In this document: positions 10,845-36,476 of the stretch, one piece after another
Layout of the letters: each line of letters opens with the position of its first letter
How positions within the stretch are numbered: position 1 is the first letter of the stretch
NCBI GenBank assembly: GCA_030446765.1
Contig: JAUJMR010000023.1
Location: 1 to 36,476, forward strand
Direction: 5' to 3'
DNA: 36,476 bases
Source: Chloroflexia bacterium
GTDB lineage: Bacteria > Chloroflexota > Chloroflexia > Thermobaculales > Thermobaculaceae
Notes under the pieces: model-generated
Seen by the model: only the letters and a program-made list of their open reading frames with translations
Told to the model about the DNA's origin: nothing
The model's database searches: none
Program-made: the position numbers and the translations under genes

Positions 10845-10889
10845 ACGGAGCGCTTCGCCGTGCGCATGGTCGAATATTATGGTAGCACC

Positions 10890-10919
10890 ATTATTCGTCA
10901 CTCTTCGGAGCGCTGTCAA
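10890..10919 (-). promoter_or_regulatory. predicted rel promoter with dyad near the start site
   Basis: Read on the minus strand: TTGACA (10919-10914), an 18-nt spacer, and AATAAT (10895-10890), one mismatch from consensus. A small dyad ATGGT-AGC-ACCAT (10879-10891) overlaps the edge of the -10 and the expected start site and could be an operator. The rel ATG is about 45 nt downstream. Confidence 0.55.
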
Positions 10920-11067
10920 CCAAAGCGATGCTACCTTTGGCTTCCTGCCGTGCAGTCTCCGGTTAATGTGGACCTGGCAGGCCAAAAGCCCTCCACCCTA
11001 GAGCAGAGGGAAGTCTACGTATGGCAAGTCGTGGCAGGCGCTGACATGTATCGGTTCGACAACGGCA

Positions 11068-11161
11068 ATGGGCGACGTTGAAGAGGGTCAACGTGGCACG
11101 GACGGTGTGGCCGTGATGGGCACGTTGAAGCCGAGAGTCGTGGCACGGACGGTGTGGCCGT
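11068..11161. repeat. two tandem 47-bp imperfect repeat units
   Basis: Units 11068-11114 and 11115-11161. Each carries an ACGTTGAAG element and ends in an identical 23-bp block (11092-11114 and 11139-11161) that begins CGTGGCACGGACGG. Only two units are present, so it is not a CRISPR array. It lies in the intergenic region upstream of the GNAT gene. Confidence 0.7.
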
Positions 11162-11334
11162 CGATTCAAGGGAGAGGGCGCGACGACTCAGTGGTGTGAC
11201 GCTGCACGGACGCGGCTGGCAGGACCGTTCCGGGATTGACCAAGGCACACATGTGGCCCGCGGACGTGTGCTGATCGGACTTTGACATGACCCTGCGTTG
11301 AAGCCGGTCGGTAGAACAAGAAGAATGTCCTGGC

Positions 11335-19049: not shown

Positions 19050-20270
19050 CTATCCCTGCGGCGTGCCTTCCGGTGCTGGCTCGTTTGGTACCGGCTGCTC
19101 TTCCGGTGCTCCCGCCGGTGGCTGGGCCTCGGGAAGCTTGAACTGGCTTTCGATCTTCGCGTTCGCCCGGAGCTCGCCGAGGAAGCCCTGAACGCGCTCG
19201 CTTATGCCGGCTTGACGCACGCCCTGCTCGACCTGGACCCGAACCTCCGTCAAGGGCTTTGCCTGACCGCCCCTCCGCGCCACCATCTTCAGCACCGAGA
19301 ATCCGCCGTCCTGCGTCGGTGCCGGATCGGACACCTGCCCAGGGCGGAGGTTGGCCACAGCCATGGCGACATCCGGCGGCAACTGCTGCACCTGCGCGAA
19401 ACCCAGATCGGCACTCTGCTCCGCAAGGTTTGGCTTCTTGCTGCCGTACTTCTTTATCACGGCGTCCAACTTCGCCCCGCCAGTGAGTTCCTTCGCGGCT
19501 GCCGTCGCCTTCGTCTGGTCATCCGTCACAACGCGCCAGACGTGCAACTCTTCCGGTGTCGAGAACTGTTGCTTGTTCTCTTTGTAGTAATCCTGAACCG
19601 TCTTGTCGGTCACCTGAACCTGCGGTCCGAGAATCTTCTGCACGTACAGGTTGAGACGCAGTTGTTCGCGGAATGCCTCAAGCGATCCGAACTGCTGGGC
19701 GATCACCTGATCCAGGTTCTGACCCTGCGCCTGCGTGCTCTGACGTGCCCTGGCCAGTTCGGCGTCGATCTCCGCATCGGTCGCGGTCACCTTTCGCTTC
19801 TCGGCCTCTTGTCGGACCAGTGCCTCCACGATAAGGCGATCCATCTCCTGCGCGCCGTAGCGCTGCTCCAACTGCGAATCGAGCTCCTCGAAGGTGATCT
19901 CCTCGCCGTTGACGACAGCGGCGGGCTTGGACCGGTCGACCTGCGTCGTGGCCTCTGGCGTCGCCCCTGTGGGCGCCTGCGCGGATTCAGTCGGTACCTG
20001 CGCCGATTCAGTGGTCGCGGCAGTCTGCGGGACGGTCTCCGTCGCCGTGCCGGATTGCGCGTCTGCCTCGGTCGGTTCACCAGCGTCAGCAACGGTCCCC
20101 GCGACAGGCGCGGTAGCTCCGGCGTTGGATTCGGTCACCTCGGTAGGCTCTGCGCCGCCGCCACCGCACGCCGCCAGCAGCAAGCCGGTGAGTAGGAGAC
20201 TAATGAGCGAGAGACGACCCCGGCCGAGTGCCCGCGCTGTGAGGGCGCTCAGGCCCCGGGTAAAAGACAC
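19050..20270 (-). CDS. PpiC-type peptidyl-prolyl isomerase lipoprotein (PrsA/SurA-like foldase)
   Basis: A 406-residue extracytoplasmic foldase. The N-terminal signal ends in the lipobox LLLAAC (Cys35). A low-complexity linker rich in Thr, Glu and Ala covers about residues 40-115. A SurA-N-like helical region follows (VNGEEITFEELDSQLEQRYG), then a parvulin domain (about 255-350, EELHVWRVVTDDQ to QDGGFSVLKMVARR). It ends in a Pro/Glu-rich tail. Its role would be folding of exported proteins on the outside of the membrane. The GTG at 20270 is preferred over upstream codons because AAGGAGGAG lies about 9 nt before it. A clear terminator follows at 18990-19024. Confidence 0.9.
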   Translation of the reverse strand: MSFTRGLSALTARALGRGRLSLISLLLTGLLLAACGGGGAEPTEVTESNAGATAPVAGTVADAGEPTEADAQSGTATETVPQTAATTESAQVPTESAQAPTGATPEATTQVDRSKPAAVVNGEEITFEELDSQLEQRYGAQEMDRLIVEALVRQEAEKRKVTATDAEIDAELARARQSTQAQGQNLDQVIAQQFGSLEAFREQLRLNLYVQKILGPQVQVTDKTVQDYYKENKQQFSTPEELHVWRVVTDDQTKATAAAKELTGGAKLDAVIKKYGSKKPNLAEQSADLGFAQVQQLPPDVAMAVANLRPGQVSDPAPTQDGGFSVLKMVARRGGQAKPLTEVRVQVEQGVRQAGISERVQGFLGELRANAKIESQFKLPEAQPPAGAPEEQPVPNEPAPEGTPQG

Positions 20271-20418
20271 GAAAAGACTCCTCCTTGGAATACTCAATCC
20301 TGCGTTCGTGTGGACCCGGTCATGATAGCCATCGCTCGAAAGGGCTGTCAAACGCACGAGCAGGGGCCCAAGGGGGTCGGAGCCTCACGAGCCGCCATGA
20401 GCGCGATTCTGCAAGCGT

Positions 20419-21222
20419 CTAGCGCACAGGGACCACCGTTGGAGTGGCACTCGCACCGCCGAGGCGCGCTGCCTCCACGCGTGCAACCTTCCAGTCCGCC
20501 GCAACTCGCTCGAAACTGAACCGCACTCGCACCAGAGTCCCAAGCCGCGAGATATCCACGTACCCCGCTGCTCGGTCATCATCGACCATCGTCAGCGCCA
20601 GCGTCTTTCTGTCCGTTCCCGTCCGCGGCCGCCCGCTGCCGAGCTTCAGGACGGTGCCGTCACCATCGACTACCCGGCGAAAGTCCGCGAGTCCAGCTTG
20701 GTAGCGGGGTGCCAAGTATGAACGGGCCCGGGCTATGCTCGCCCCGCCCTGGCTCTTGGTTCCCTGCGGTTGCATGGTTTGGTTTGCAGCTGCCACAAAC
20801 CCCGCCGCGACCTGTCGAATCTGTGCCTCCTCTGCCGCGCGATTCTCGCTGGGTGCGCCGCTGCCAAAACGCAGGCCAGGAACAATGGACACCATGGCGA
20901 CCAAGGCTGCGGTGAGGACCAGTGCTACCGCGCCACGCCCGATGGGAGTGGCCGCGCTAATGAACCGCAGGGGCGAAAATCGAGATCGCCGCCGCTGTAT
21001 TCGCGGCAGCACTTGCGCATCGATTTGCGCAAGCCGGGGCTGCATCTCCCGCGGGACGACAGGCCACGCGCCGACGAGTGCGTCGGCGCGCCGCAGATAG
21101 TTGAGGGTCGCGACACAGTCGGGACAGCGGTCGAGGTGCTCCTCAATCTGGCGCTCCTCGACTTCAGACGCGTCTCCATCCACGTACAGCGGCAGTAGAT
21201 CTTCCAACTGCTCGCAGGTCAT
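20419..21222 (-). CDS. zinc-binding anti-sigma factor with one membrane segment
   Basis: A 267-residue anti-sigma factor. The N-terminal zinc-finger anti-sigma domain (residues 1-45) carries Cys3, His29, Cys33 and Cys36 in the H-x3-C-x2-C pattern (HLDRCPDC). A membrane helix at about residues 94-117 (GRGAVALVLTAALVAMV) is followed by an extracytoplasmic domain of about 150 residues with no recognised family. It should hold the ECF sigma factor at the membrane. The ATG at 21222 overlaps the sigma stop as ATGA, so the two are translationally coupled. GAGGAGAG precedes the start. The region downstream to 20271 has no other gene. Confidence 0.88.
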   Translation of the reverse strand: MTCEQLEDLLPLYVDGDASEVEERQIEEHLDRCPDCVATLNYLRRADALVGAWPVVPREMQPRLAQIDAQVLPRIQRRRSRFSPLRFISAATPIGRGAVALVLTAALVAMVSIVPGLRFGSGAPSENRAAEEAQIRQVAAGFVAAANQTMQPQGTKSQGGASIARARSYLAPRYQAGLADFRRVVDGDGTVLKLGSGRPRTGTDRKTLALTMVDDDRAAGYVDISRLGTLVRVRFSFERVAADWKVARVEAARLGGASATPTVVPVR

Positions 21223-21758
21223 CCGTCGCTCTCCTCGCTTGCCCGCAGGCTTCGGGCAAGTGCCAACCGCGCCCGGTACGTCCGCGTCTTCACCGCTCCC
21301 TCCGAGATGCCGAGCATCGACGCTATCTCCTGGTACGAGAAACCGTCGCGCACTGATAGCAGGATGCAGGCAGCCTGCTCGGGAGGTAGGGCTCGCAGGG
21401 CCGTGCCTAACTCCTCCCGGTTCACCATCTGTTCTTCCAGCCCCAAAGCGGTCGCGTCGTTGCCGCTGGGGTCGAGAGGCGACCACTGCACGATCTTCCG
21501 GCGGCGGTGATATGACAGGGCGGCGTTCGACGCGATAGTGTACAACCACCCACGGAGGTTCAGACCTGGCTGCGTGCGGCCTATCGACCGGTACGCATTC
21601 ACAAACACATCCTGCGTCAGATCAGCCGCGATGTCCGGGTCGCCCACCATCCGGTAGAGATACCCGGCGATCTGCGATTGATATTCGCGATAAATCGCCT
21701 CGAAGGCCGAGGCATCGCCCTGTCGTGCCTGCTCGACCATTGACAGGTCGACGGGCAT
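21219..21758 (-). CDS. ECF (sigma-24/RpoE-type) RNA polymerase sigma factor
   Basis: A 179-residue extracytoplasmic-function sigma factor. Region 2 (about residues 10-80) includes YREYQSQIAGYLYRMVGD and DLTQDVFVNAYRSI; region 4 (about 115-170) includes LPPEQAACILLSVRDGFSYQ and the HTH EIASMLGISEGAVKTRTYRA. The start is uncertain: ATG at 21758 has GAGGTGG upstream, while a TTG at 21776 adds six residues and has a weaker G-rich site. It is paired with the downstream anti-sigma factor, overlapping by 4 nt. The inducing signal is unknown. Confidence 0.92.
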   Translation of the reverse strand: MPVDLSMVEQARQGDASAFEAIYREYQSQIAGYLYRMVGDPDIAADLTQDVFVNAYRSIGRTQPGLNLRGWLYTIASNAALSYHRRRKIVQWSPLDPSGNDATALGLEEQMVNREELGTALRALPPEQAACILLSVRDGFSYQEIASMLGISEGAVKTRTYRARLALARSLRASEESDG

Positions 21759-21843
21759 GCGCACCACCTCTTCCAAGCGTCGCGCCCCCCTCTACACTCG
21801 ATAGAACGTGCGACGGGGGCGCGAGGTCACATAAGGTTCGCTG

Positions 21844-21972
21844 CTAAGAGCTGAGTTCGCCCTCCGGCCCAAGAATGCGATCTGTGATATACGTCGCAAG
21901 CCACGTCGCTACGATGCCGAAAACGAGTCCCAGTAGCCCTTTGACCAATCTCCTCCGTACGTCCTCATCCAT
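21844..21972 (-). CDS. small single-pass membrane protein (42 residues)
   Basis: An unannotated-size gene on the minus strand. AGGAGG lies 8 nt before the ATG at 21972, as good a ribosome site as any in the window. The protein starts MDEDVRRRLVKGLLG, has one hydrophobic helix at about residues 11-29 (KGLLGLVFGIVATWLATYI), and ends in a charged tail DRILGPEGELSS. The charge pattern suggests an N-in orientation. I do not recognise a family. It sits between the site-2 protease gene (184 nt upstream) and the sigma factor gene (85 nt downstream), all on the same strand, so a role with them is possible but unproven. Confidence 0.7.
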   Translation of the reverse strand: MDEDVRRRLVKGLLGLVFGIVATWLATYITDRILGPEGELSS

Positions 21973-22155
21973 CGCATATACCTCCTATGAGCTAAGCCTG
22001 CACCCGCTGTTATACCACTACCCCGCCGTGTTGGGGAATAACGACAGTCCACGACCCGAACAGGACCGGCGCGAAACCAGCTCGCTTTTCCGAGGCGTCG
22101 GAGCACATCCGGTCCTGCTTGGCAGTGCGAGACTCAGTGCCCAACCCCGATCGCC

Positions 22156-23271
22156 CTAAGCGCGCGACGGCTGTGGACGCCGCATCAGCTGCACGAGGTC
22201 GTTCCTGCTCACGATCCCGATCGTCCTACCATCCTCCACCGTTCGCAGGAGAGGAGAGCGTGCCTCCTCCAGCGTGTCGAGCGCGCTCATCGCCGACGCC
22301 GAAAGACTCACTTGCGGGATTCCAGTGATAGGTGTCATCACGGAGAGGATTGGCGTGACAGGCCAGAGATGCCGCGGAAGCCGGGTGAGCTCATACGCGT
22401 CCACCACGCCAGCGGGTTGATCTTCGTCCTCGAGGAGGTAGAACCGCCGCCCGGTGGTGCTGATGTACCCCGCGAACAACTCGTCGATGGTCAGTCGGCC
22501 GGGCACGGTGATCAGCCGCACCTGCGCCGCGGACACGGGAGTCTTCCTCAGCGTGTCGAGCACCACTGCCTGCTGGTAGCTCTGCCGCGCAAGGGAGACC
22601 AGGAACCAACCCACCAGCGCGAGCCACAACGACCCCAGGTCGTTCTGGGTGATCGCGAGATAAATCCCAAGGAAAATGAGCACGAGGCCAACGAGGCGCC
22701 CCGCTGTCGCTGCGACCCACGTTGACTTTCGGTAGTTGCCGGTGATTCCCCACACGAGAGCGCGCAGCACCCTGCCGCCATCAAGGGGAAAGCCCGGCAC
22801 GAGGTTGAAGAGCACAACGCCGATATTGAGCAGCGCGACCATCCTGAGTGCACCGGCGACTATCGGGAGCGGCCCTGCCAGCAGCTCGTAGCCGCCCCAG
22901 AACAAGGCACTGAGTACCACACTAACGGCAGGCCCCGCCACGGCGATCCAGAACTCCTCACGGGCGCGGCTCACCTCACGGCCGAGTTGCGCGACGCCAC
23001 CAAACAGGTGGAGCGTTATCGCCCGCACCGGTATCCCGTAGTGTTGAGAGGCGATGCTATGTCCCAGCTCGTGCGCCACGAGCGAGCCGAAAAACAGTAG
23101 AGCAACGAATGCAGCCAGTGGCCAGTACACCCAGCTGGAGAGATTCGGCACCCAGAGCGGGAGCTGACTCGTGGCCAGCGAGAACACGACGAATCCGAAC
23201 ACCAGGAACCAGCTCGGATTCACGAAGAACGGAATCCCGGCGAGTGTGCCGACTTTGATGCCACCGAACAT
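22156..23271 (-). CDS. site-2 protease family (M50) intramembrane metalloprotease with CBS domains
   Basis: A 371-residue multi-pass membrane protease. The zinc site is HELGHS in FGSLVAHELGHSIASQHYG and the distal ligand motif is NLVPGFPLDGGRVLRA. About six membrane segments lie in residues 15-225. Two CBS domains occupy about residues 240-365 (YELTRLPR, PILSVMTPI, GIVSRNDLVQLM) and may sense nucleotides. Rip1/SpoIVFB-like enzymes cleave membrane-bound anti-sigma factors or pro-sigma factors. The ATG at 23271 has AGGAGG upstream and starts the family's usual FGGIKVGTLAGIPFFVNPSW. Its nearness to a membrane anti-sigma factor on the same strand makes a regulatory link plausible. Confidence 0.92.
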   Translation of the reverse strand: MFGGIKVGTLAGIPFFVNPSWFLVFGFVVFSLATSQLPLWVPNLSSWVYWPLAAFVALLFFGSLVAHELGHSIASQHYGIPVRAITLHLFGGVAQLGREVSRAREEFWIAVAGPAVSVVLSALFWGGYELLAGPLPIVAGALRMVALLNIGVVLFNLVPGFPLDGGRVLRALVWGITGNYRKSTWVAATAGRLVGLVLIFLGIYLAITQNDLGSLWLALVGWFLVSLARQSYQQAVVLDTLRKTPVSAAQVRLITVPGRLTIDELFAGYISTTGRRFYLLEDEDQPAGVVDAYELTRLPRHLWPVTPILSVMTPITGIPQVSLSASAMSALDTLEEARSPLLRTVEDGRTIGIVSRNDLVQLMRRPQPSRA

Positions 23272-23358
23272 AGTAGGGCCTCCTGCAACAGTATAGCCAA
23301 GCCACCGCCGCTCCCCGCCTATGCCCTTGTGTAATAGCATCCAGCACGGATCGATGGA

Positions 23359-24234
23359 TCACACGGCCCCACCGAACATCGCCTCAGTCAGGCGCCGGAT
23401 TGGGCCGCCAAGTCCCCCGCTCTCCGATAGCTGCCGAAGCTGGCCATCGTCACGCTCCGACTGCTGCACGTCCACCCGTACATCCCGCCGCATCGGCACC
23501 ACGCGCTCCGCCGCTGCCAGGTACGCACGCGCCTCCGTCAACCGCTGCGCCAGCTTCGGTGGGTGGGCGCTCGCGTCGTCAAGCAGCGCGGCGACTGATG
23601 GATACGCCGAGATCAGGCGCGCTGCCGTCTTCGCGCCAACGCCGGGCACACCCGGCAGGCCGTCCGAGGGGTCGCCCCGCAGCATCGCGAACTCCACGTA
23701 CCGCGCAGGCGGCACGCCGTACGCCTCCTGCACGGCCGCCTCATCGAGCACCTTCAGGTCCGACACGCCCTTGACCGTGAATAGCACGCGAACCTCGGGA
23801 TCGGCGTCACGCACGAGCGCGAGGAGATCGCGGTCCCCGGTCACGATATCGATCCTGTCGCCGTCGTCTGATCCACTGCACAGCGAAGCGATGGCGTCGT
23901 CCGCCTCCCAGCCCGGCGCGGCGGCGATCTCTGCGCCCAAGGCCACCAGCGCACGATTGAGCAGATCGAACTGCGGGGGGAGAGCCTCCGGATCCGGCGG
24001 ACGTGCCGCCTTGTACTCGGGAATCGCCTGGACTCGCTCCGCCGGGCGGAAGTCGTCGTCGAGCACGTGCATCACGCGGTCCGGTGCGTACTTCGAGATC
24101 AGGCGCGCCGTCATGTCCAGGTAGCCGTGGACCGCGTTCACAGGGTTACCGGCCGCATCCGTCATCGACTGCGGAAGTGCGAAGAACGCCCGGTACATCA
24201 AGCTCGACGTGTCGAGCAGCATCACCGACCCCAT
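23359..24234 (-). CDS. stand-alone 5'-3' exonuclease (FEN/Pol I N-domain family)
   Basis: A 291-residue protein matching the N-terminal 5' nuclease domain of DNA polymerase I, without a polymerase part. Acidic metal-binding motifs are visible: LLDTSSLMYRAFFALP, DRVMHVLDDDF, WEADDAIAS and TGDRDLLAL. The helix-three-turn segment is GDPSDGLPGVPGVGAKTAA, which binds DNA. It should remove RNA primers or DNA flaps. The C-terminus (after ~250) is variable. The ATG at 24234 has AAGGAG upstream. It ends close to the site-2 protease start region; whether polA elsewhere carries its own 5' nuclease cannot be told from here. Confidence 0.9.
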   Translation of the reverse strand: MGSVMLLDTSSLMYRAFFALPQSMTDAAGNPVNAVHGYLDMTARLISKYAPDRVMHVLDDDFRPAERVQAIPEYKAARPPDPEALPPQFDLLNRALVALGAEIAAAPGWEADDAIASLCSGSDDGDRIDIVTGDRDLLALVRDADPEVRVLFTVKGVSDLKVLDEAAVQEAYGVPPARYVEFAMLRGDPSDGLPGVPGVGAKTAARLISAYPSVAALLDDASAHPPKLAQRLTEARAYLAAAERVVPMRRDVRVDVQQSERDDGQLRQLSESGGLGGPIRRLTEAMFGGAV

Positions 24235-24272
24235 GACAGCACCTGCTCCTTCTCCAGAAGTCGGAACACCAC

Positions 24273-25562
24273 CTATGCCTTGAGGAACAACTCCACCACC
24301 GGCACGGCCACATCCGGCCGCTGCACGGGGAGCTGGAGCGTGAGCAACCCTTCCTCACCGGTCATCGTCATGTTCTGCGCCTCGGCGTGCGGGTCGAGCT
24401 CAAGCATGCGCACCTCGGAGGCGTCGTTCAGGAGCTGCGCGTACTCCACCCGACCCGCGAGACCGGGCAGGTGGACGTGCTGGAAGGGCCACGCAAACAG
24501 GTGCAGGTACAGCCGGTTCCCATTCTGCGTGTACCGGCAGTCCACGGGCGGCGTGAGGTCGCTCGCCGTGCATCCGTAGATGGAACGCCCATGCAGGCGC
24601 ATCCACTCCCCGATGCCGCGCAGGCGCGCCAGCGCGCGCGGCTCGAACTCCCCGCGCCCGTTCGGCCCGACGTTGAGCAGCAAGTTCCCGCCCTTGGATA
24701 CCGAGTCCACGAGCATGCGAATCAGCAGATCGACGGGCTTCCAGTCCAAGTTATCGCGGTCGTAGCCCCACGAGCCGGTTAGCGTCTGGCACGCCTCCCA
24801 GACCACAGGCTTACCGTCGCGCATCATCCATCCGCGCGGCTGATACTGCTCCGGAGTTTGGATATCCGCGGCGCCCGGCAGGTCCAGCCGGTCGTTCAGC
24901 ACAACATCCGGCTGCAGCTCGCGCACCATCCGCGCCAGCTCCTCGGAGCCCCAGTCATCGCGCCCCTTCCCATCCCAGACGCGACCAGGGTACGAGAAGT
25001 CGAACCACATCACGTCCACCTTGCCGAACCGCGTCAGCAACTCCCGCGTCTGGCCGTGCAAGTACTCCCGGTACTTCGCGATGTCCCGGTTTTGGTTTGC
25101 GGCCTTGAACTCCTCATCGTCACGCTGCGCGTGCAGACCGTCCACGGGGAAGTCCGGGTGGTGCCAGTCGATCAGGGAATGATAGAAGCCGACCTTGAAG
25201 TCCTGCGCGCGAAATGCCTCCACCATCGTCGCCAGCACGTCCTGTCCGTACGGCGTTTTCGTTACTTTATAGTCCGTGAGCGCGGAGTCCCACAGGCAGA
25301 ACCCCTCGTGGTGCTTCGTCGTGACGACGAAGTACTTCATGCCCGCGTTCTTCGCCTCCTGCGCCCAAACGTTCGGGTCATATAGATCAGGGTAGAAATG
25401 GTCGACGTATTTCTGATACTCCTCATCACGGATCCGCTCCCGCTGCCGCACCCACTCGTGCCGTGCGGCCGGACTGTACGCACCCCAGTGGATGAACAGC
25501 CCGAAGCGGTCGTGCGTGAACCAGCTCGTGTCTCCAGTGGTCGGCTCGGGCAACGTCGGCAT
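24273..25562 (-). CDS. alpha-L-fucosidase (GH29)
   Basis: A 429-residue glycoside hydrolase of family 29 that releases alpha-linked L-fucose with retention. The N-terminal catalytic barrel shows RFGLFIHWGAYS, FVVTTKHHEGFCLWDS and GFYHSLIDWHH. The probable nucleophile is Asp188 in VDVMWFDFSYPG. The C-terminal beta domain starts near residue 340. No signal peptide is seen, so the enzyme should be cytoplasmic and act on imported oligosaccharides. The ATG at 25562 is preferred over an upstream in-frame ATG because AAGGAG lies before it. It is the last intact long gene before the frameshift-rich region and starts a sugar-use island. Confidence 0.93.
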   Translation of the reverse strand: MPTLPEPTTGDTSWFTHDRFGLFIHWGAYSPAARHEWVRQRERIRDEEYQKYVDHFYPDLYDPNVWAQEAKNAGMKYFVVTTKHHEGFCLWDSALTDYKVTKTPYGQDVLATMVEAFRAQDFKVGFYHSLIDWHHPDFPVDGLHAQRDDEEFKAANQNRDIAKYREYLHGQTRELLTRFGKVDVMWFDFSYPGRVWDGKGRDDWGSEELARMVRELQPDVVLNDRLDLPGAADIQTPEQYQPRGWMMRDGKPVVWEACQTLTGSWGYDRDNLDWKPVDLLIRMLVDSVSKGGNLLLNVGPNGRGEFEPRALARLRGIGEWMRLHGRSIYGCTASDLTPPVDCRYTQNGNRLYLHLFAWPFQHVHLPGLAGRVEYAQLLNDASEVRMLELDPHAEAQNMTMTGEEGLLTLQLPVQRPDVAVPVVELFLKA

Positions 25563-25877
25563 GGACTCTCTCCTTGGGTGTGGGCGTATTCGCAATCCGC
25601 TTGAACCATCGTGCATGTCATCCCGAACGCAGTGAGGGATCCCTAGCCCGTTCCACGGACTCCTCGCAGGCTCGCAATGAGCTATGTCCTACCGTTCAGC
25701 TGGGCTCCGTATTACACAGTCGCGGCCCATCTTAGCAGGCTCCGGTGCCCCGTACTACCACAGGCAACAGCGACGACTACGTGCGATCGCTCCGAGCCGC
25801 CGTGGTCCGCGAAATGCGCCATCCCTGTACGGCCCACACACGCAACACAACAGCGACGTAAGTAAGGGGACGTATCG
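25563..25877. other. divergent intergenic region between fucosidase and GH13 genes
   Basis: No gene recognised in 315 nt. It contains repeat copy 3 (25617-25681). No convincing promoter pair was found for either of the divergent glycosidase genes. Confidence 0.45.
25617..25681. repeat. interspersed imperfect palindrome, copy 3 (inverted)
   Basis: About 65 bp, in the opposite orientation to copies 1 and 2. It begins GTCATCCCGAACGCAGTGAG, then GGGATCC, and ends with CTCCTCGCAGGCTCGCAATGA. The distal arm is more diverged than in the other copies. It lies upstream of two divergent genes, where it could affect transcription or RNA folding. Confidence 0.65.
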
Positions 25878-27431: not shown

Positions 27432-27495
27432 CTGGTCTCCGTGCGTAACCGACAAGTGACCGGGATGGAAGACCCCAGCGTCAAAGGAGGGCAAC

Positions 27496-27819
27496 ATGCA
27501 GCGCGTCGGACAAGTGATCGGCATCAAGCCCGCGAAGATCGAGGAGTACGAGGAGCTGCACCGCGCGGTGTGGCCGGAAGTGCTCGCGATGATCCACGCG
27601 TGCAACATCCGCAACTACTCAATCTACCGCCACGAGCACCTGCTCTTCTCCTACTTCGAGTACATGGGCGACGACTATGAGGCGGACATGGCGAAGATGG
27701 CCGCCGACCCCAAGACGCAGGAGTGGTGGGCGATCACCGCGCCGATGCAGGATGCCCTGCCCGACCGCGACCCGGATGACTGGTGGAAGCCCATCCCCGA
27801 GGTGTTCCACGCGGACTGA
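27496..27819 (+). CDS. rhaM: L-rhamnose mutarotase
   Basis: A 107-residue protein of the RhaM family (dimeric alpha/beta barrel), which interconverts the alpha and beta anomers of L-rhamnose. Family features are VGQVIGIKPAKIEEYEELH, RAVWPEVLAMIHACNIRNYS, a Tyr/Phe-rich YFEYMGDDY and a terminal DWWKPIPEVFH. AAAGGAGG lies about 8 nt before the ATG at 27496. It reads in one frame, unlike its long neighbours. Members of this family are often found with genes for deoxy-sugars, which fits the fucosidase nearby; the same fold can serve fucose. Confidence 0.92.
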   Translation: MQRVGQVIGIKPAKIEEYEELHRAVWPEVLAMIHACNIRNYSIYRHEHLLFSYFEYMGDDYEADMAKMAADPKTQEWWAITAPMQDALPDRDPDDWWKPIPEVFHAD

Positions 27820-27852
27820 CCGTGCCCATCGAACGGAGAGAAAGGAACGCTC

Positions 27853-28231
27853 ATGCACCGCAGCAGGCTGGGATCCGTCATTATCGACTGCGAGGACCTG
27901 GAGGCGTGCGTCCGGTTCTGGAGCGGCGCGCTCGGCGTCGAGCCCGAACGCGACCCTGAGGACGGTGTGTACGTCGGCCTCACCGCGCCCGGTGGCCGGC
28001 ACATCTTCCTCCAGCGCGTGCCCGAGCGCAAGACCGCCAAGACCCGCATGCACATCGACATCGAGACGACGACATCGAGGCCGAGGTCCGGCGGCTCGAA
28101 GGGTTGGGGCGACGCGAAAGGAGGACCAGAGAGAGTTCTGGGTCATGCAGGACCCGTGCGGCAACGAGTTCTGCGTGATCGTGCCGGTGACCGACAACTT
28201 CCCCGACCGGGCGCAAACCTGGGAGCCGTAG
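27853..28231 (+). pseudogene. VOC/glyoxalase-fold protein, two frameshifts as read
   Basis: Restored, this is about 126 residues of the vicinal oxygen chelate (glyoxalase/bleomycin resistance) fold. The sequence runs SVIIDCEDLEACVRFWSGAL, GRHIFLQRVPE, TRMHIDIET, then FWVMQDPCGNEFCVI and ends FPDRAQTWEP. Metal ligand positions are plausible at His in MHIDIE and Glu in GNEFCV. The substrate is unknown; close relatives include many uncharacterised glyoxalase-like proteins. The breaks are a missing G in ACGACGAC near 28,066 and a missing G in the GGGG run near 28,107. A G-rich site (GAGAGAAAGGAA) precedes the ATG at 27853. It is convergent with the kinase gene that ends 30 nt away. Confidence 0.78.
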
Positions 28232-28261
28232 CGTGCAAGGTCACCAGTACAGCGTGTATCG

Positions 28262-29247
28262 CTACCGGAACCGTGCCGCTCCCCCGCGTAGCACGGCCAG
28301 CACCTCGTCCGCCGTCACCACCGCTATGTCGCCCGCGATACCGCGCTTCAGCGCCGCGACGGCGTTCCCGAACTGCAGCGGCGTGACCGCCAGTTCCGCC
28401 CGCACCCGCGCGTAGTGCTCCCCACCGAGGTGCGCGTACAGATACCCGGCGGCAAACGCATCGCCCGAGCCGAACCGGTGCGTCCCCTCCGACGGGTACG
28501 CCGCCGCCTGGCTGAAGATCCCGCCGCGCAGCTCCGCCGACCCCTCCGCGCCGAGCGTCACCACGAGCGTCTTGTCCCGACCGAAGCGCTCGGCCAACGC
28601 TTCGAGCAGCCCTCGGGCCGCCCCTCGACACCCCACAACGCCGTCGCGTCCTCGCGCGTGCAGAAGAGGACATCCGCCATCCGGCATGCATCCTCCAGAT
28701 CTCGCCGTCGCCGCCTCCGCGCTCCATAGCTTCGCACGGTAGTTCACGTCGAGGGAGATAGGGACGCCCAGACGCGCGCGCGCGCCTCAGCAAACGCCAC
28801 CACGCCTCGCGCGGACCAGCGCCGAGTGCGGGCGTGATACCCGTCAGGTGCAGCAGGCGCGCGCCATCCAGCGCGGCAAGGTCCACCTGCTCCGGTTGAG
28901 GAGCGCGAGCGCGGAGCCGGCGCGGTCGTAGACAACCCGCGTCCCCAGCGGGGGATCGGCCTGCTCCACCCAGTACAGCCCGACCCCGCCGGACGCCTCC
29001 CCCACGCCACGTGCCGCGTTTCCACGCCGTGACCGGCCAGCGTTCGCGACACGAGCCGTCCAAGCGGGTTGTCCGGCAACGCCGACAACCAGGCGCACGA
29101 GAGTCCCAGCCGTGCCAGGCACGAGAGCGTGTTCGACTCCGTACCCGCGACGTGGACATCGAGGCGCCGCGCCTGCTCCAGCCGCTCGCCGCCGGAGGGA
29201 CCGAGCCGGAGCATCGTCTCCCCGAAGGCAATCACGTCGTATCCCAT
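28262..29247 (-). pseudogene. kdgK: 2-keto-3-deoxygluconate kinase (PfkB family), at least five frameshifts as read
   Basis: Restored, it is about 325-330 residues of the PfkB family, the KDG kinase type, which phosphorylates 2-keto-3-deoxygluconate. It starts MGYDVIAFGETMLRL and continues with GTESNTLSCLARLG, LYWVEQADPPLGTRVVYDRA, LLHLTGITPAL, SLDVNYRAKLWS, ADVLFCTRED, LLEALAERFGRDKTLVVTLG and the catalytic GSGDAFAAGYLYA. The order and spacing are those of an intact gene read in changing frames. Breaks include G or C shortages near 29,015 and 28,895. The ATG at 29247 is placed by the family start. The next gene, KDPG aldolase, diverges 58 nt away and takes the kinase product. Confidence 0.8.
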
Positions 29248-29305
29248 CCGTCCCCCGCTGGCGTGCTTCCTGCTCGCACCGCCCGACAGTGTATAGAGGC
29301 TGGGG

Positions 29306-29966
29306 ATGGAAAGGAAGGGGCTGTTGAGGCAGGACACGACGGGATACCTGCGGCGAGGCGCGCCGATAGCGATCGTGCGACTGGACGACCTATCCGAGGC
29401 GCTCGCGATCGGCCGGGCGCTGGTGGACGGCGGCATCACCGCGCTCGAGTACACGCTCACGAACCCCGAGGCGCTGGATGCTGTCGGGCGCGTGCGAGCC
29501 GAGTTGGGGAAGCAGCACTCGTCGGGGCAGGCACGGTGCTCGATGCTCGGAGCGCCCGCGACGCCATATCAGCGGGCGCGCAGTTTCTCGTGTCCCCAAC
29601 GCTCGAGCCGGAAGTGATCGCGTGCGGCATGGAGCGGGACGTGCCGGTCATCTGCGGGGCGATGACGCCGACAGAAATCCTCACCGCCCACCGCCTTGGC
29701 GCTGACATGGTGAAAGTTTTCCCCGCACGCTCCCTTGGCCCGGCGTATATCAAGGATCTGCTTGCCCCGCTCCCCGACCTTCGACTCGTGCCCACGGGGG
29801 AGTCGGGCTCGACAACTGCCGCGCGTTCATCGACGCAGGCGCCTACGCCGTCGGCCTCGGCAGCGCACTCATCGACCCGCGTCTGGTCGCGGATGGTGAC
29901 TGGCCCGCACTCACCGCCCTGGCCCGGCGCTACGTCGATGCCTGCATCGGCGACGACAACGCCTAG
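29306..29966 (+). pseudogene. eda: KDPG aldolase (2-dehydro-3-deoxy-phosphogluconate aldolase), two frameshifts as read
   Basis: Restored, this is about 220 residues of the class I aldolase that splits KDPG into pyruvate and glyceraldehyde-3-phosphate. The visible order is GAPIAIVRLDDLSEALAIG, GGITALEYTLTNPEAL, VGAGTVLDARSARDAISAG, AQFLVSPTLEPEV, GADMVKVFPARSLGPAYIKD, and GLGSALIDPRLV. The Schiff-base Lys is expected in MVKVFPA. A G is missing in a GGGG run near 29,505 and another in a run of G near 29,803. GAGG precedes the ATG at 29306. With the divergent kinase gene it forms the lower part of the Entner-Doudoroff or uronate route. Confidence 0.85.
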
Positions 29967-30192
29967 AGATCCAGTCGGCCAACTGGGGGGGCCGGGTGAG
30001 GATCCGTGCTGTTACACTGTTGCTGTTGGGCGGCCGCAAAAGGCACCTCTACTAGTAAAAAAGGAGTTGAGACGGTTCGGTTGGGCGCTTTTCGAACCCC
30101 GTTTCGATTTTGCACCCATTGCGCCCAGCGATGACGTGGTCGAACGTCCGAACAACTGGACCCAAGCCAGCAAGCAGCGAAAGATCGTCAAC

Positions 30193-30810
30193 ATGACCGA
30201 ACCGCGCAGCCGCACCGTGGGCATCCTCATCTTCGACGACGTCGAGGTGCTCGACTTCTGCGGTCCCTTCGAGGTCTTTGCCACGGCGCGTCCGGCGGGC
30301 GAGCACAGCGACGCCGCGCCGCTCTTCACCGCGATCACGATCGCCGAGGCGATGCGGACCGTCACCTGCCGGGGCGGGCTCCTTGTTCAGCCGAACGCGA
30401 CGATCGCCGACCACCCGCCGCTCGACCTGCTCGTCGTCCCAGGCGGCCAGGGCACGCGCCGCGAACGACACAACGAGCGGGTCCTCGACTGGATCGCCGC
30501 CCAAGACCAGAGCACCGAGCTGACGACGAGCGTCTGCACCGGCGCGTTCCTCCTCGCCGAGCGGGGGCTCCTCGATAATGGGCAGCGCGCCACCACGCAC
30601 TGGGGCTCCGTCGACTGGATGCGGTCCGAGTACCCTGCTGTGACCATGCTGGACGACCGGCGCGTCGTGGACGAGGGGCGCATCATCACGTCGGCCGGCG
30701 TCTCCGCCGGGATCGACATGAGTCTGCACGTCGTCGCGCGCCTCCATGGGTTGGAAACAGCCGCCTGGACCGCGCGGCGCATGGAGTACGACTGGCGACC
30801 AACGGCATAG
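30193..30810 (+). CDS. DJ-1/PfpI family protein, isonitrile-hydratase-like
   Basis: A 205-residue protein of the DJ-1/PfpI superfamily. Conserved segments are VGILIFDDVEVLDFCGPFEV, LDLLVVPGGQGTR, and the nucleophile elbow SVCTGAFLLAERGLLDNG (Cys near residue 118), then ATTHWGSVDW and ITSAGVSAGIDMSLH. This set is shared by isonitrile hydratases and by the N-terminal domain of some AraC-family regulators; no C-terminal HTH is present here. The exact reaction is uncertain. The ATG at 30193 has only a weak purine-rich site (GCGAAAGA). The frame is open some distance upstream, but that part lacks a good start and similarity. It is one of two genes in this region with no frameshift. Confidence 0.85.
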   Translation: MTEPRSRTVGILIFDDVEVLDFCGPFEVFATARPAGEHSDAAPLFTAITIAEAMRTVTCRGGLLVQPNATIADHPPLDLLVVPGGQGTRRERHNERVLDWIAAQDQSTELTTSVCTGAFLLAERGLLDNGQRATTHWGSVDWMRSEYPAVTMLDDRRVVDEGRIITSAGVSAGIDMSLHVVARLHGLETAAWTARRMEYDWRPTA

Positions 30811-30904
30811 ACGCCGTATTATGTAAGTTATCCGCCCGATACCGTGGGGGCAACCCCAGGCCACCCTCGTCACGTGTCCACGATGACCAGAGAGGAGCCC
30901 GCTC

Positions 30905-33900
30905 TTGTCCGCTCCCAACGATGGACAGCCCCGGCAGATCTCGCCCACGGATGTCGCTCAGTACATCCGTCTCGAGCAAATGCCGCCGCTACCTGCGCCT
31001 CCGCCTCGACGAGCGCGTCTACCGACGCAGCATGCTGCGCGATTACGATGTTCAGCCACAAGCACTGCCGCCGCTGCTTACCCTCTCCGGACGGACGTTC
31101 GAGGAACGCGTTCAGACAGGCAGTCAGCGCCCGACACCCTTCCCGCGACCTCCAGGCGGAGAGCGCTGCAAAGCAGCGGGAAAAGGCCGTGCGGCGGACA
31201 ACGACGCCGTGCTGGCGGAGTGTCGCGACCTGGAGCCGGGGCGGTGCGCGTCCTGTTCCAGCCACGGCTTGATGTCGTGGTCGGCGGCTGGCAACTGCGC
31301 GGTGACCTCGATATCCTGCGGCTGGAGCGGGACCACGATGGCCGCCTCAGTATCCTCATCGCCGATATGAAGAGCTCGACGAGCGCGAAGGTCGAGCACC
31401 GGCTGCAGGTCGCCTTCTACCACCAGATGGTCACCGGCCTCTTGCAGGAGCACGGCATCGAGCACGAGTCGATCCGGCTCGGCATCCTGTACCGCGGCCC
31501 GGCCGACGGTGACGAGGGACTCGACGACAAGGAGCTGAGCGCCGACAGGCGGAGCACGACGCGGCACAGCGCCTGTTCAGCGTCGACGACGCGCTGCTGG
31601 AGATTATCGAGGACCCGGACAGCTACCTGGGTGCGGTTGCCGACCTCGTGACGCGCAACGGCTCCACGGCGGAGCAGGTCGCGGAGGCGTACTTCCCGGA
31701 CGTGCCGTATCACCTGGAGCACAAGTGCGACGGCTGCCTCTACAACGAGTACTGCATGAAGTGGAGCGCGGAGGAGGACGACCTCTCGCTGCTGCCGTAC
31801 CTCACGGTCGGGGACAAGAGCGCCCTGCACGCGGCCGGCATCCGCACGACGCGGGACCTTGCCACCCTGAAGGAGCCCGTGCCTGGGGAGAAGGAGCGGC
31901 TCCTGCCCGCACCCGGCCGAACGCAGCAGGTCCGCCGCATCTCCGCGACGCGCGGCGTGGGCGCCCGGCTCGACGAGTTGGTTCACCGCGCCCGCTTGTT
32001 TCGCCGGAGCCAGCGGGACGACATCGAGGCGCTCACGTACATCCCGAGCAAGGGGTATGGCACGCTGCCCTACTCCGCCCCCGGCCACAACGCGAACCTC
32101 GTGCGGGTCTATCTCGACGCCCAGCACGACTACCTGAACGATCGCATCTACATGCTCGGCGCGCTCGTCGTCGCCTGCGAAGACGGCGCGCCGGTTCGCC
32201 GGCGGTCCATCGTCCGCCTCGCCGACGGCCCGCCCGAAACGAATGAGCGGGAGCGCGACCTGTTCGAGTCGTGGATCAACGAAACCGTTTCCGCCATTGT
32301 CGGCTCGCCGCCCCGGACGAAAACGGCGAACGGTGCGCGCCGGTCCACCTCATCTTCCACCATTCGTTTGAGCAGCGCCGCCTGCTGGAGGGGCTCGGGC
32401 GGCACCTGGACACCCTCCTCGGCGCCACGCCGCTCTACGACTTCGTCACCCAGCTCGCCGCGTTCGACTCACCCGTCGCCACCTTCCTCGACCAGGAGAT
32501 CCGCGAGCTGAAGAACTACCCATGCTCTGCCAGTCATTCCAGTCGGTCGCCCGCTACCTCCGGTTCAACTGGAACACCCCAGAGCCGTACGCCGAGATCT
32601 TCAAGGAGCGCCTGTTCGACTACCTCGGCCGGCTGGACGACGGCAGCACGGACGAAGCACTGGTACACCAGCCGCTCGCGCTTCAGCAGCCAGATCCCGC
32701 TGGAGTACGCGTGGGCGGCGTGGGGCACCATCGAACCGCAAGCGCCGGGCACGCCGGACGACTACGCGCCGTACCGCACCGCGACCCGTTCCCTTCTTGA
32801 GGGCTTCCAGGCACGCCGGCTGAAGCTATGGAGCACATCGCAGCGGACTTCCGCGGCAACAAGTACACCCTGAAGACGCCGTTCGAGCTGCCGACGCTCG
32901 GTGAGATCGACCCCAGCCGCCGGACGCTCGCCCACGCCATTCGGGAGTTCGTGACCATCGAGCGCCACGTTGTGCTCGCCGACTGGAAGCGCCGACGCCT
33001 CGCGCCCCCCGGAGCGCCGTGTCCTCTCCGGCGATGCCCTCATCGTCCGCTACCACGACGCGGACCAGGACCCCGAGACCCAGGATAACCTCCGCCGCTG
33101 GCGATTGGAGCAGGACCGCGCGGCGTACCGTCAGGAGAACCCTGAAGCCAAGAAGGTCAGTCTCTCATCCCGGAGCAGAAGGCGGCCATAAAGTGGAGCA
33201 AGGACACGCTGGACCTCCGCCTTCGGCTCGACTGTGCGGGCCTCGACTGCGACCTCGAGGAGGCGCTCGACCTCTCCACCCTGCGCGAGCGCGACAGCGT
33301 GATTGTTTACCCGCGCACCTCCGTCGATGGCCGCCTGCCCCCGGAGCAGCAGACTCCCTTCACACACCCCGAAGCAGATGCTGTACGGCCTGCGCGGCTA
33401 TATCCGAGGCGGGTCGAGCGCGAGAGTGGAGACGCGGGCCGCGCCACATCGGGCTGGGTCTCTCTGGAGATGCCGAAACCCGGTGGTGGCAAGCTCGCGG
33501 GCGGCTTCGCCTTCGCTGCGATGGGCGGGCCGGTCGTGGACGGCGAGGTCTACACCCTCGATGCGGACCCGAACGACATCTACGGCTACTGGTGCTCGAA
33601 GGTCGCGGACGGGCTCGTGGACGGTGGGCGCAACACGCTGTATGAGTACCTCACGCGCACGTCGACCACTGCCCCGACGTGGTCCGCGAAGGCCGCCGAG
33701 GGGCAGGCCCGGTTTCTTCAGGGGCTGGAAGCGCTGGATGCCGCGGGAGCGCTGCACCCGTTCGAGGCGGGCAAGCACGAGTTCATCGGGCAGCACGGTG
33801 CAGTCCCGTGCTGCTCGTCCAGGAGGCCGCCCGGCACCGGCAAGAGCTACACGACCGCGTGGGCCGTGCTCGCGCGCATCCAGGGCGCGATGGCCGCAGG

Positions 33901-35291
33901 CGTGCCGTATCGCGTGTTCCTCTCGTGCAAGACGCACGCGGCCACGGACGTGCTGATCGCGAACGTCGTCACCGTCCAGAAGAAGCTCGATGCCCTCAGG
34001 TACAGCCACACCGACATCTTCCGTGCAGTACTTCGATCGTCGGCTCCTCGACGTGCCGCTCTACCGAATGCACCACCCGCGCGAGACGGTGGAAGGCACC
34101 GTCGCGCTGTACAAGAAAGACCGGCGCAAGGACGGCGACCCCAAGCCCACCGAAGCCATCATGGCACAGCAGTGGTGCGTGCTCGCCGCGACGCCGGGTG
34201 GCATCTACGGGATGATCACGGACCGGTGGGACGCGAAAAGGCTTTTCGGCCACGACCTGTGCGACTGCCTCGTGCTCGACGAGGCGTCCCAGATGAACCT
34301 GCCGGAGGCCGCAATGGCCGCGCTCCCGCTCGCGCCCGGCGGCCGGCTGGTCGTCGTCGGCGACCCGCGCCAGATGCCGCCGATCGTGCAGCACGACTGG
34401 GTCGCGGAGCCCCGGCGCACCATCAAGGAGTACCGCACGTACGAGTCGCTGTACCTGACGCTGGAGGCGCTGAACCCGCCGCGCATCGCGTTCGAGGAGA
34501 GCTTCCGGCTGCACGCCGACATGGCCGAGTTCCTCCGGCGTGAGGTGTATCAACACGACAACATCAACTACCACTCGCGCAAAGACGAGGTGCTCGAAGC
34601 CCATCCCTACGCCGACCCCTTCGTCGCCGCCGTGCTCGCGCCCAGCACCCGCTTGTCGTGATCGTCCACGACGAAGCCATCAGCCAGACCCGCAACGAGT
34701 TCGAGCGGGATCTGATCGCGCCCGTGCTGCGCGCCCTCGCCGGCTACCCGCACGCCCTGGGCGTCGAGCACGGCCTCGGCGTCGTCGTGCCCCACCGCGA
34801 CCAGCGCGCCGCCCTGCAGGAGATCGGCGAGCTCGTCCGCCGCGACGCTGCAACAGGCGCGGTGAAGCTCTCCGCGGTGGACACCGTCGAGCGCTTCCAG
34901 GGCGGCGAGCGCGACGTCATCGTCGTCAGTGCGACGGAGAGCGACCCTGCGTACCTGCTCGCTGCCGCGGGGTTCCTGCTCGATCCTCGCCGCCTCACCG
35001 TCGCCCTCAGCCGCGCGCAAGATGATCCTCGTCGCCTCCCGGAGCGTCTTCGCGCTCTTTTCCACGGACGAGGAGACGTTCGCCCACTCCCAGCTCTGGA
35101 AGAACTTGCTCAACCGCACCTGCACGCAGCCCCTCTGGACCGGCGCCCACGACTGGCAGGGCACGCCTGTCACCGTCACGGTCTGGGAAACACCCCAGCA
35201 GCACTCAAGCCTCGGTTGTCGCGTTCCCAGAGGAGTCCGGCCCTGGCCATCAAGTAGAGGGTTGATGCATAGGGGCGTTTCGCCGCCCTGA
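30905..35291 (+). pseudogene. TM0106-like Cas4/RecB nuclease - RNase H-like - SF1 helicase fusion, about 17 frameshifts as read
   Basis: Restored, a protein of about 1,450 residues with three enzyme parts. Part 1 (nt 30,905-31,900) is a Cas4/RecB-type PD-(D/E)XK nuclease: GDLDI (31,300), IADMKSS (31,360), QVAFYHQM, and an Fe-S cysteine set of one early Cys (EQCRRYL, 30,981) with C-x2-C-x5-C (31,726-31,755). Part 2 (32,090-32,520) is an RNase H-like domain as in TM0106-family proteins, with VYLDAQHDY where DxE is usual. Part 3 (33,820-35,050) is an SF1 helicase of Upf1/DNA2 type: PPGTGKSYTT, VLDEASQMNLPE, VVVGDPRQMPPI, VERFQGGERDVIVVSATE and RRLTVALSRA. The TTG at 30905 has GAGGAG 7 nt upstream. 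Frame breaks of +1 and -1 are spread evenly, many in C or G runs (for example 33,010, 34,025, 34,640). The 3' end is uncertain, 35,257 to 35,291. Confidence 0.75.
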
Positions 35292-35379
35292 CACACCTGG
35301 CCATCCCTGATCGCGCCGATTACGGCACAGCGCGTTTGAGTGGGTAGCGCGTAGACCGCGTGAACGGAGGAGGTCCCGC

Positions 35380-36476
35380 CTGATCCAATATGATGTTGAC
35401 GGAGCGACACTTCCTTTCGGCGACGGCTCGCTCTCCACCAGGGGCCACGACCCGGCTCCAGGCTGTGCCCGCCGACCTCGCGCGCCGCTTCGCCCCCGCC
35501 ACGCACTGCCTCTATGAGTGGACATCGTACTGGCTCGACTACCCGGCGCGGATATGCTCCGTATCGGCGATCATCTCCTCCACCCGGTGAAGGGCTCCTT
35601 CTTCGAGGTCCGCTTCGAGAACCAGCTCGGTCTCTCCCAGATCCAGCCACTCGCCGGCGTGACGCCGCTCTGCCCGCCGCTGGTCGTGGAGGTGCTGTCG
35701 CCCAGTTCCCGTCGCCGCTGGCTCACCTGGAGTTCTACAGCACGCTGCTCGACGACCTGTACCTCCGGGCATCGCGCCTGCCGTTTACGTTCGCCGCGCC
35801 CACCACGCGCACCGCGCGCAGTCCTCCGCCCGCCGACACCGCTGTTCACGCTGCACTACCTGTGTGCCCACGCCCAAGAGATCAATGCGACCATCGCCAC
35901 CGTGCTCGCCCGGCCGCACCGGCAGTTGCGCGTCATCCGCAGTTCGTCCCCTCCACGAGGCCAGCGAGGCGGACGCCGACGTCTTGATCGGGATCCTCCA
36001 GTCCCCGGAGGAGTGGGTGCCGAACCGGACCTTGCCGCTCGCGCGAAGGCTCGGCGGCTACGCCCCGCGGCGGGTCTGGCAGCGCCAGCCCGAGGAGACG
36101 TTCGACACCCCGGAGGGGGGCTTCGTGCTCTCCTTCCTCGGTGCGCTCCTGGCCGCCACGGAGGCTTTGCCCAACGCCCCGTGGTGGCACAGTGTTCTGC
36201 AGGCCGCCAGCGCACCGTCCGCGATCTCACCAGCACGCTGCGGCAGACCCGACTCCACTCGATGTTCACAGAGGTCGGCCAGATGCAGCGCCTGCTCGCG
36301 TCCTCTCAGGTGGTCCTGCGCCGGGAGGGCTATCGGCAGATGCTGGAGCTTTGGCAGCAGTTCCACCGATCCCGCCGCCCGGTATTCGAGCCGCTCCAGC
36401 ACGCGATCGAAGTCCGCGATGTCGCCACGCTGTACGAGATGTGGGTGTTCTTCGCCCTCACCGAGCAGATCGGCGA
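35380..36476 (+). pseudogene. DUF2357 / PD-(D/E)XK (McrC-like) protein, frameshifted and cut by the window edge
   Basis: Restored, at least 365 residues, running off the right edge. Segments in order: QYDVDGATLPFGDGSLS, RLQAVPADLARRFAP, YEWTSYWLDYPAR, DHLLHPVKGSFFEVRFENQL, HLEFYSTLLDDLYLRAS, LHYLCAHAQEINATIA, QPEETFDTPEGGFVLSFLGA and QVVLRREGYRQMLELWQQF, then ATLYEMWVFFAL. The FDTPE element (ETPEN in homologues), the RREGYR segment and LYExW are typical of DUF2357 proteins, whose C-terminal part is a PD-(D/E)XK nuclease; that nuclease lies beyond the window. At least five frame changes occur. The start is uncertain: GGAGGAGG (35,366-35,373) is followed 6 nt later by CTG at 35380, which may be a misread ATG or GTG; an ATG at 35390 is less well placed. 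It follows the nuclease-helicase by about 90 nt in the same direction. Confidence 0.68.

What the first reader, a model, noticed from the sequence alone, without database searches (positions are those of the whole stretch)
30905..36476. Candidate two-gene DNA-processing or anti-phage system: nuclease-RNase H-helicase fusion plus DUF2357 protein
Seen: a single reading path joins a Cas4/RecB-like nuclease with Fe-S cysteines, an RNase H-like domain and an Upf1/DNA2-type SF1 helicase, and a DUF2357-type protein follows on the same strand after about 90 nt. Known: TM0106-family nucleases resemble Cas4 but have no known CRISPR link; DUF2357 proteins carry a PD-(D/E)XK nuclease and usually pair with McrB-like AAA ATPases, as in type IV restriction. 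Here the motor would be an SF1 helicase instead. Inference: a restriction-like or repair module in which a processive nuclease-helicase works with a McrC-like effector. I know of no described system with exactly this pair, but cannot search.
Basis: partly seen in the sequence, partly recalled or inferred. Interest (0 to 1): 0.78.

Follow-up and report, generated by a model that had tools for sequence, protein, structure and literature searches.

The report
Dna2-like nuclease-helicase beside McrBC restriction genes
A bacterial gene for a Dna2-like DNA-cutting motor stands directly in front of a restriction gene, mcrC, whose usual partner mcrB follows at once in a sister species, so this is likely a modified-DNA restriction pair next to a predicted DNA-end-processing enzyme, not a new two-gene system with a swapped motor.

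Summary
A frame-broken gene encodes a Cas4/RecB-like nuclease, an RNase H-like region and a UPF1/DNA2-type SF1 helicase; a DUF2357 (McrC) gene follows on the same strand and is cut by the contig end (the window is the whole contig). A same-genus genome has both without frame breaks (the helicase split over two contigs), and there McrC is followed at once by a McrB-like AAA_5 protein. So the claim that an SF1 helicase replaces McrB fails: McrB presumably lies just past the contig end. The pairing is local: of 158 class genomes, 23 carry both families, and adjacency was seen only in the window's genome and its congener; a third genome of the family keeps a McrB remnant behind the helicase. The helicase belongs to a large, uncharacterised, mostly solitary family whose best solved-structure match is DNA2. 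Its central domain is predicted to have a DEDD-exonuclease fold, probably inactive. In one side branch Mre11-like (4 of 5) and Rad50-like (3 of 5) genes follow it, pointing to DNA-end processing. Most likely: a McrBC type IV restriction pair beside a bacterial Dna2-like end-processing enzyme; a functional link is possible but unproven.

The parts
30905..35329 (+). Nuclease-helicase gene (about 1450 aa in the nearest full-length relatives); frames broken in this assembly, open in relatives
   Evidence: Ends mapped from same-genus loci L051 and L011; open frames in relatives
30932..31774 (+). Cas4/RecB/Dna2-like PD-(D/E)XK nuclease domain with four Fe-S-type cysteines
32080..32870 (+). Central domain with predicted DEDD (DnaQ/polymerase-proofreading) exonuclease fold, motif I degenerate
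33755..35023 (+). UPF1/DNA2-type SF1 helicase core
   Evidence: AAA_11 and AAA_12 in window pieces; best solved-structure match of the family profile is DNA2, E 3e-30
35351..36476 (+). mcrC-like gene, truncated by the contig end
   Evidence: Mapped from L011; 541 aa with DUF2357, PDDEXK_7 and McrBC hits in G001
35611..36352 (+). DUF2357 domain (McrC N-terminal, McrB-activating in known systems)
   Evidence: PF09823 hits in two frames of the window and over the whole domain in G001

Best explanation
The stretch holds a Dna2-like nuclease-helicase gene followed by the truncated mcrC gene of what is likely a McrBC-type (type IV) restriction pair, whose mcrB presumably lies just past the contig end. 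Inferred mechanism: the McrB-like AAA ring is predicted to read a modified base through an EVE-type domain and to drive the McrC nuclease to cut that DNA. The neighbouring protein is predicted to thread on single-stranded 5' ends, move 5' to 3' with its SF1 helicase and cut with its Fe-S nuclease, so that it would trim or degrade DNA ends; the central exonuclease-like domain would bind rather than cut DNA. The two units are most likely separable: the nuclease-helicase is a general end-processing enzyme of this lineage and sits in front of mcrBC here, where it could help destroy the cut DNA.
For: Same-genus G001: helicase C-terminus, McrC (DUF2357 5e-29, PDDEXK_7 7e-14, PD...DAK motif present) and a McrB-like AAA_5 protein lie in that order on one strand, the mechanical frames of McrC and McrB overlapping. 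Same-family G004: a McrC plus EVE-AAA_5 McrB pair (EVE 1e-15) on a contig apart from its helicase. 11 of 40 fetched DUF2357 loci have an NxD-type McrB next door; 1 of 40 (G001) has the helicase. The helicase occurs in 67 of 158 class genomes, and no neighbour family recurs in more than 5 of 33 loci. PDB best match DNA2; nuclease domain matches Cas4 and Dna2. In one branch a Mre11-like gene follows it directly in 4 of 5 members and a Rad50-like gene lies there in 3 of 5; the misses are contigs that end.
Against: No McrB was found in the window's own genome, so its presence there is inferred from G001. G003, another genus of the family, keeps a McrB C-terminal remnant directly behind its helicase, although the other neighbours differ; this hints that helicase and McrBC travel together. 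G002, same genus, has no hit for helicase, DUF2357 or McrB. The Mre11/Rad50 link is in a side branch, not in the window's clade. Pfam does not call EVE in G001's McrB. The plain Foldseek list for the nuclease half is weak (best E 7e-4).
Confidence: 0.66

Rival explanations
1. One three-gene restriction system: McrBC cuts modified DNA and the Dna2-like nuclease-helicase is its dedicated degradation arm, as UPF1-like CnuH helicases are near-constant partners of type II/III CoCoNuT McrBC systems.
For: Same strand, short gap and order helicase-mcrC-mcrB in G001; McrB remnant behind the helicase in G003 among otherwise different neighbours; no hit for any of the three in congener G002; McrB is of the NxD branch that contains CoCoNuTs; the bacterial Dna2-like enzyme Bad sits beside a methyltransferase gene in Geobacilli and was proposed as a possible restriction subunit (PMC7430649, Discussion read).
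Against: No adjacent DUF2357 seen in 65 of 67 class genomes with the helicase (broken assemblies may hide a few); in G004 the two units lie on different contigs; co-occurrence across 158 genomes is not above chance (23 both, 44 helicase only, 38 DUF2357 only, 53 neither; Fisher p 0.41, not corrected for kinship).
Confidence: 0.22
2. One reading: helicase plus DUF2357 protein act as a pair, the SF1 helicase replacing McrB as motor.
For: Adjacency in the window and in G001.
Against: A McrB-like gene directly follows mcrC in G001; the pair without McrB was seen in none of the 40 DUF2357 loci fetched outside the window.
Confidence: 0.03
3. The locus is a decaying pseudogene pair in this strain.
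For: Many frame-breaking indels in both genes; the G003 copy of McrB is a remnant with a stop.
Against: Indels also hit upstream genes and are densest in the last stretch before the contig end, while substitutions keep the third-codon-position bias of selected genes.
Confidence: 0.05

Closest known systems
Bad, bacterial DNA2-like helicase-nuclease of Geobacillus stearothermophilus (Wilkinson et al. 2020, PMC7430649; abstract, passages and Discussion read)
   Same: Same layout as described there: N-terminal iron-staple RecB nuclease, an extra central domain absent from eukaryotic DNA2, C-terminal SF1 helicase; in Geobacilli the bad gene also lies beside a DNA-modification gene.
   Different: Bad is 1245 aa, this clade about 1450 aa. 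Bad's sequence was not at hand, so homology of the central domains was not tested. Bad is described as rare and sporadic; this family is in 67 of 158 class genomes.
Eukaryotic DNA2
   Different: A central DEDD-fold domain is predicted here; most members examined have no conserved neighbours.
McrBC type IV restriction, EVE-McrB and NxD branch (PMC7641849, passages; PMC11090510, passages and section 7)
   Same: DUF2357-PD-(D/E)XK McrC next to an AAA_5 McrB with an NxD motif and, in G004, an EVE domain.
   Different: Order is mcrC then mcrB here; a nuclease-helicase gene stands in front in this genus.
CoCoNuT type II/III with CnuH helicase (PMC11090510, passages)
   Same: NxD McrB, McrC and a UPF1-like SF1 helicase together.
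   Different: In G004 the McrB carries an EVE domain; the McrC nuclease motif is intact; the helicase is a nuclease fusion and is not linked to McrBC in the other genomes searched.
TM0106-family RecB-like nuclease (TIGR03491)
   Same: Local similarity, mainly at the cysteine region.
   Different: Scores 18.6-29.3 bits in the four helicases tested against a cut-off of 97.45.

Membership tests
McrBC type IV restriction pair | McrC with DUF2357 and PD-(D/E)XK nuclease | tested here: met
   G001 protein: PF09823, PF04411 and PF10117 over cut-off, PD...DAK motif; the window holds the DUF2357 part only
McrBC type IV restriction pair | Adjacent McrB-like AAA_5 NTPase | tested here: met
   Met in G001 and G004; in the window's own genome inconclusive, contig ends and no match in the assembly
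McrBC type IV restriction pair | Modified-base reader domain on McrB | tested here: inconclusive
   EVE in G004 at 1e-15; not called by Pfam in G001, though the N-terminal part of the two aligns at 37%
McrBC type IV restriction pair | Restriction of modified DNA | not testable with these tools
   Needs a plaque or cleavage assay
CoCoNuT type II/III | NxD motif in McrB | tested here: met
   GTVNVDETTH in G001 and G004
CoCoNuT type II/III | Near-constant linkage of McrBC to a UPF1-like helicase | tested here: not met
   Tested with this helicase family's profile: 1 of 40 DUF2357 loci; adjacency seen in 2 of the 23 class genomes with both families
CoCoNuT type II/III | Coiled-coil fusion on McrB; OB/RTL domains on the helicase | not tested
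   No coiled-coil prediction was run
DNA2-like helicase-nuclease (Bad/DNA2) | Iron-staple nuclease: RecB motifs plus four spaced cysteines | tested here: met
   31 of 31 aligned rows, one Asp-to-Glu exception; Cas4 and Dna2 fold matches; an Fe-S cluster itself is predicted, not shown
DNA2-like helicase-nuclease (Bad/DNA2) | C-terminal SF1 helicase of the UPF1/DNA2 group | tested here: met
DNA2-like helicase-nuclease (Bad/DNA2) | Sequence kinship to Bad's central domain | not tested
TM0106 family (TIGR03491) | Score over the curated cut-off | tested here: not met
   Best 29.3 bits against 97.45

The most novel reading that the evidence does not exclude
The three genes form one restriction machine in which McrBC cuts modified DNA and a dedicated Dna2-like motor unwinds and shreds it from the cut. 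The same enzyme family, fused to a DEDD-fold domain, works in other Chloroflexota as a bacterial Dna2 with its own Mre11-Rad50, so that one enzyme family serves both defence and end resection.
Probability: 0.2. Interest if true: 0.72.

Novelty: new variant of a known kind. Interest (0 to 1): 0.45.

Why it matters
The cellular role of bacterial Dna2-like enzymes is open (Discussion of PMC7430649). Here a large bacterial family of that layout is found in two informative contexts: in front of a McrBC restriction pair in one genus, and directly in front of Mre11-like and Rad50-like genes in one branch. The fold prediction gives the central domain a testable identity as a DEDD-type exonuclease fold with a degenerate motif I. 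For the original claim the result is sobering: the supposed swap of motor most likely came from a contig that stops one gene too early.

Tried and rejected
Rejected: SF1 helicase in place of McrB (G001 locus). Rejected: TM0106 membership. Rejected: gene decay as the main cause of the broken frames; a caution there is that part of the last stretch (34808-36476) is the poorly conserved end of the helicase gene and the gap behind it, where real divergence may add indels. PADLOC hits of the helicase to MkoA, DpdJ, PDC-S37 and others cover mainly the SF1 part (also a weak Cas4 hit on the nuclease) and were not taken as membership. Defence-island test: of 106 open frames at positions -2 to +2 of the helicase, PADLOC matches at 1e-10 were sporadic (25 of 29 families shown: mad3 and mad8 in 5 members each, which I take to be generic ATPase matches; GlgB in 2; DrmMI, type IIG enzyme, Cas3c, WYL, HerA and PDC-M05A in 1 each); the Pfam list (25 of 91 families shown) is mostly transport, signalling and metabolism. 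That set holds mechanical open frames that may not be genes, for example the reverse-strand one upstream of the helicase in L051. NurA beside the helicase: 1 of 67 (G016). phmmer of the G001 McrC against solved structures gave nothing at E up to 1. Paper searches: DUF2357 + helicase gave 3 papers, TM0106 + nuclease + helicase none, Cas4-like nuclease + RNase H + helicase + fusion + bacteria none, Dna2 + Mre11 + Rad50 + 'bacterial operon' none, 'bacterial Dna2' and variants 25 papers, 15 listed, with Bad first; other searches are. Passages of PMC5704561 on Cas4-family nucleases describe UvrD and YprA-type helicase partners. I found no description of this three-gene locus in those searches and passages of an open-access library; that is not proof of absence from print. 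Rows dropped: in the neighbour count, three loci that duplicate contigs already held, and in the list of 106 also L071; in the tree, five duplicate loci, rows under 1000 aa and rows under 500 bits. Two of the 67 helicase genomes (G069, G087) score only 211-257 bits and may not be true members. In 20 of the 23 genomes with both families the two lie on different contigs, so assembly breaks could hide a few adjacencies. The 40 DUF2357 loci argue against many: only L011 has the helicase, though several are short and L016 has no upstream sequence. No profile comparison with Bad was run. The second structure job was not used.

Full report
What is there. The window is the whole contig G000:C102. In 30905-36476, window pieces hit AAA_11, AAA_12 and DUF2357. 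A same-genus genome, G001, matches window 30197-34597 at 92.5% on one contig and 34808-36476 at 86% on another. There the first gene is a single open frame of 1230 aa up to the contig end, its C-terminus lies on the second contig, and the second gene is an unbroken 541-aa protein. The window's frames are broken by short indels that also strike the genes upstream: 2 gaps in 5.7 kb at 19906-25580, then 13 in 2.5 kb, 20 in 4.4 kb, and 22 in 1.7 kb next to the contig end. Substitutions peak at the third codon position in 7 of 9 reference frames, both genes at issue included. Assembly error is the likelier cause; unbroken copies exist in relatives.

The missing neighbour. In G001 the DUF2357-PDDEXK_7 protein is followed on the same strand, in an overlapping frame, by an 877-aa AAA_5 protein with McrB-like motifs: GISGTGKT, a LDEMN Walker B, and the shortened GTVNVDE motif of the kind that the CoCoNuT paper calls NxD (PMC11090510 section 7; the motif assignment is my reading). 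Its only solved-structure match is the GTPase subunit in 6ut3, weak (E 0.0075). G004, another genus of the family, has the same pair with an EVE domain, on a contig apart from its helicase. In the window's genome no McrB was found, as expected if it lies past the contig end. G003, a third genus, has only a McrB C-terminal remnant, 56-58% identical, directly behind its helicase on the same strand. G002, of the window's own genus, has no hit for any of the three.

Is the pair recurrent? In 158 class genomes the nuclease-helicase is found in 67 (E <= 1e-60) and DUF2357 in 61; 23 have both. They are adjacent in G000 and G001, about 100 kb apart in G008, and on different contigs in the other 20. 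Co-occurrence is not above chance (Fisher p 0.41, kinship not corrected). In 400 phylum genomes, a draw that overlaps the class set, the counts are 24, 40 and 4, with no adjacency (stricter thresholds, which drop G000). Around 40 DUF2357 genes outside the window, 11 have an NxD McrB next door and one, G001, has the helicase. So the adjacency is, as far as searched, a trait of one genus with a trace in a second.

Where the family sits. Among 33 helicase loci no neighbour family recurs in more than 5. The tree (46 rows, quick method, midpoint root) puts G001's protein in a 29-row clade in which I found no conserved neighbours. In a 15-row group apart from it, a five-member branch (G016, G019, G195, G359, G187; support 100) has a Mre11-like gene directly downstream in 4 of 5 and a Rad50-like gene nearby in 3 of 5; in the missing cases the contig ends. 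NCBIfam names three of these Mre11-like and two of the Rad50-like proteins as Mre11 and Rad50 relatives, all below the equivalog cut-offs. In G019 a HerA gene stands on the other side, and beside G016's second copy, which is in the same 15-row group, stands a NurA gene. Eukaryotic Dna2 works with Mre11-Rad50 in end resection (established knowledge), so end processing is the best-supported role for the family; for the window's clade this is by kinship only.

How it likely works. Shown: gene order, domain content, conserved active-site residues of both nucleases in relatives, presence of McrB in sister genomes. Inferred: McrBC reads and cuts modified DNA; the nuclease-helicase processes DNA ends; here the second may clean up after the first. 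The Bad paper suggests that a bacterial Dna2-like enzyme may be part of a novel restriction enzyme, because in Geobacilli it neighbours a methyltransferase gene; the present locus is a further link of such an enzyme to restriction genes, thin because it rests on one genus and one remnant.

Verdict. The claimed two-gene system with a swapped motor is not supported. What remains of interest is the Dna2-like family, its DEDD-fold insert and its Mre11-Rad50 neighbours.

Noticed in passing
L059 (G019), L061 (G016), L188 (G195), L187 (G359): A branch of the nuclease-helicase family is directly followed by a Mre11-like gene in 4 of 5 members, with a Rad50-like gene nearby in 3; HerA flanks it in L059.
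   Followed up: yes
L013, L014, L016, L017, L019-L023, L025, L027, L030; L154-L159: Many genomes of the class have a solitary DUF2357 protein with a PD...DAK motif and no McrB beside it, while a McrB-like AAA protein lies elsewhere in the same genome: 12 of 12 such genomes fetched; NxD motif matched in 4 of the 6 McrB-like frames with a P-loop that were checked. Possibly a split McrBC.
   Followed up: partly
L060 (G016:C533) 10173-11267: A NurA gene stands directly upstream of another member of the nuclease-helicase family.
   Followed up: partly
NZ_CP128401.1 118739-122668: A member of the family lies on a 375-kb plasmid of Candidatus Chlorohelix allophototropha; in G008, whose contig C3 has the same length, an EVE-McrB/McrC pair lies about 100 kb away.
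   Followed up: no
window 27484-36476: Frame-breaking indels relative to the sister genome are frequent here, in upstream genes too, and densest in the last stretch before the contig end.
   Followed up: partly
L141 3-12728: A 4242-aa open frame, open at the record's start, in an Elusimicrobia record matches the helicase core (81 bits).
   Followed up: no
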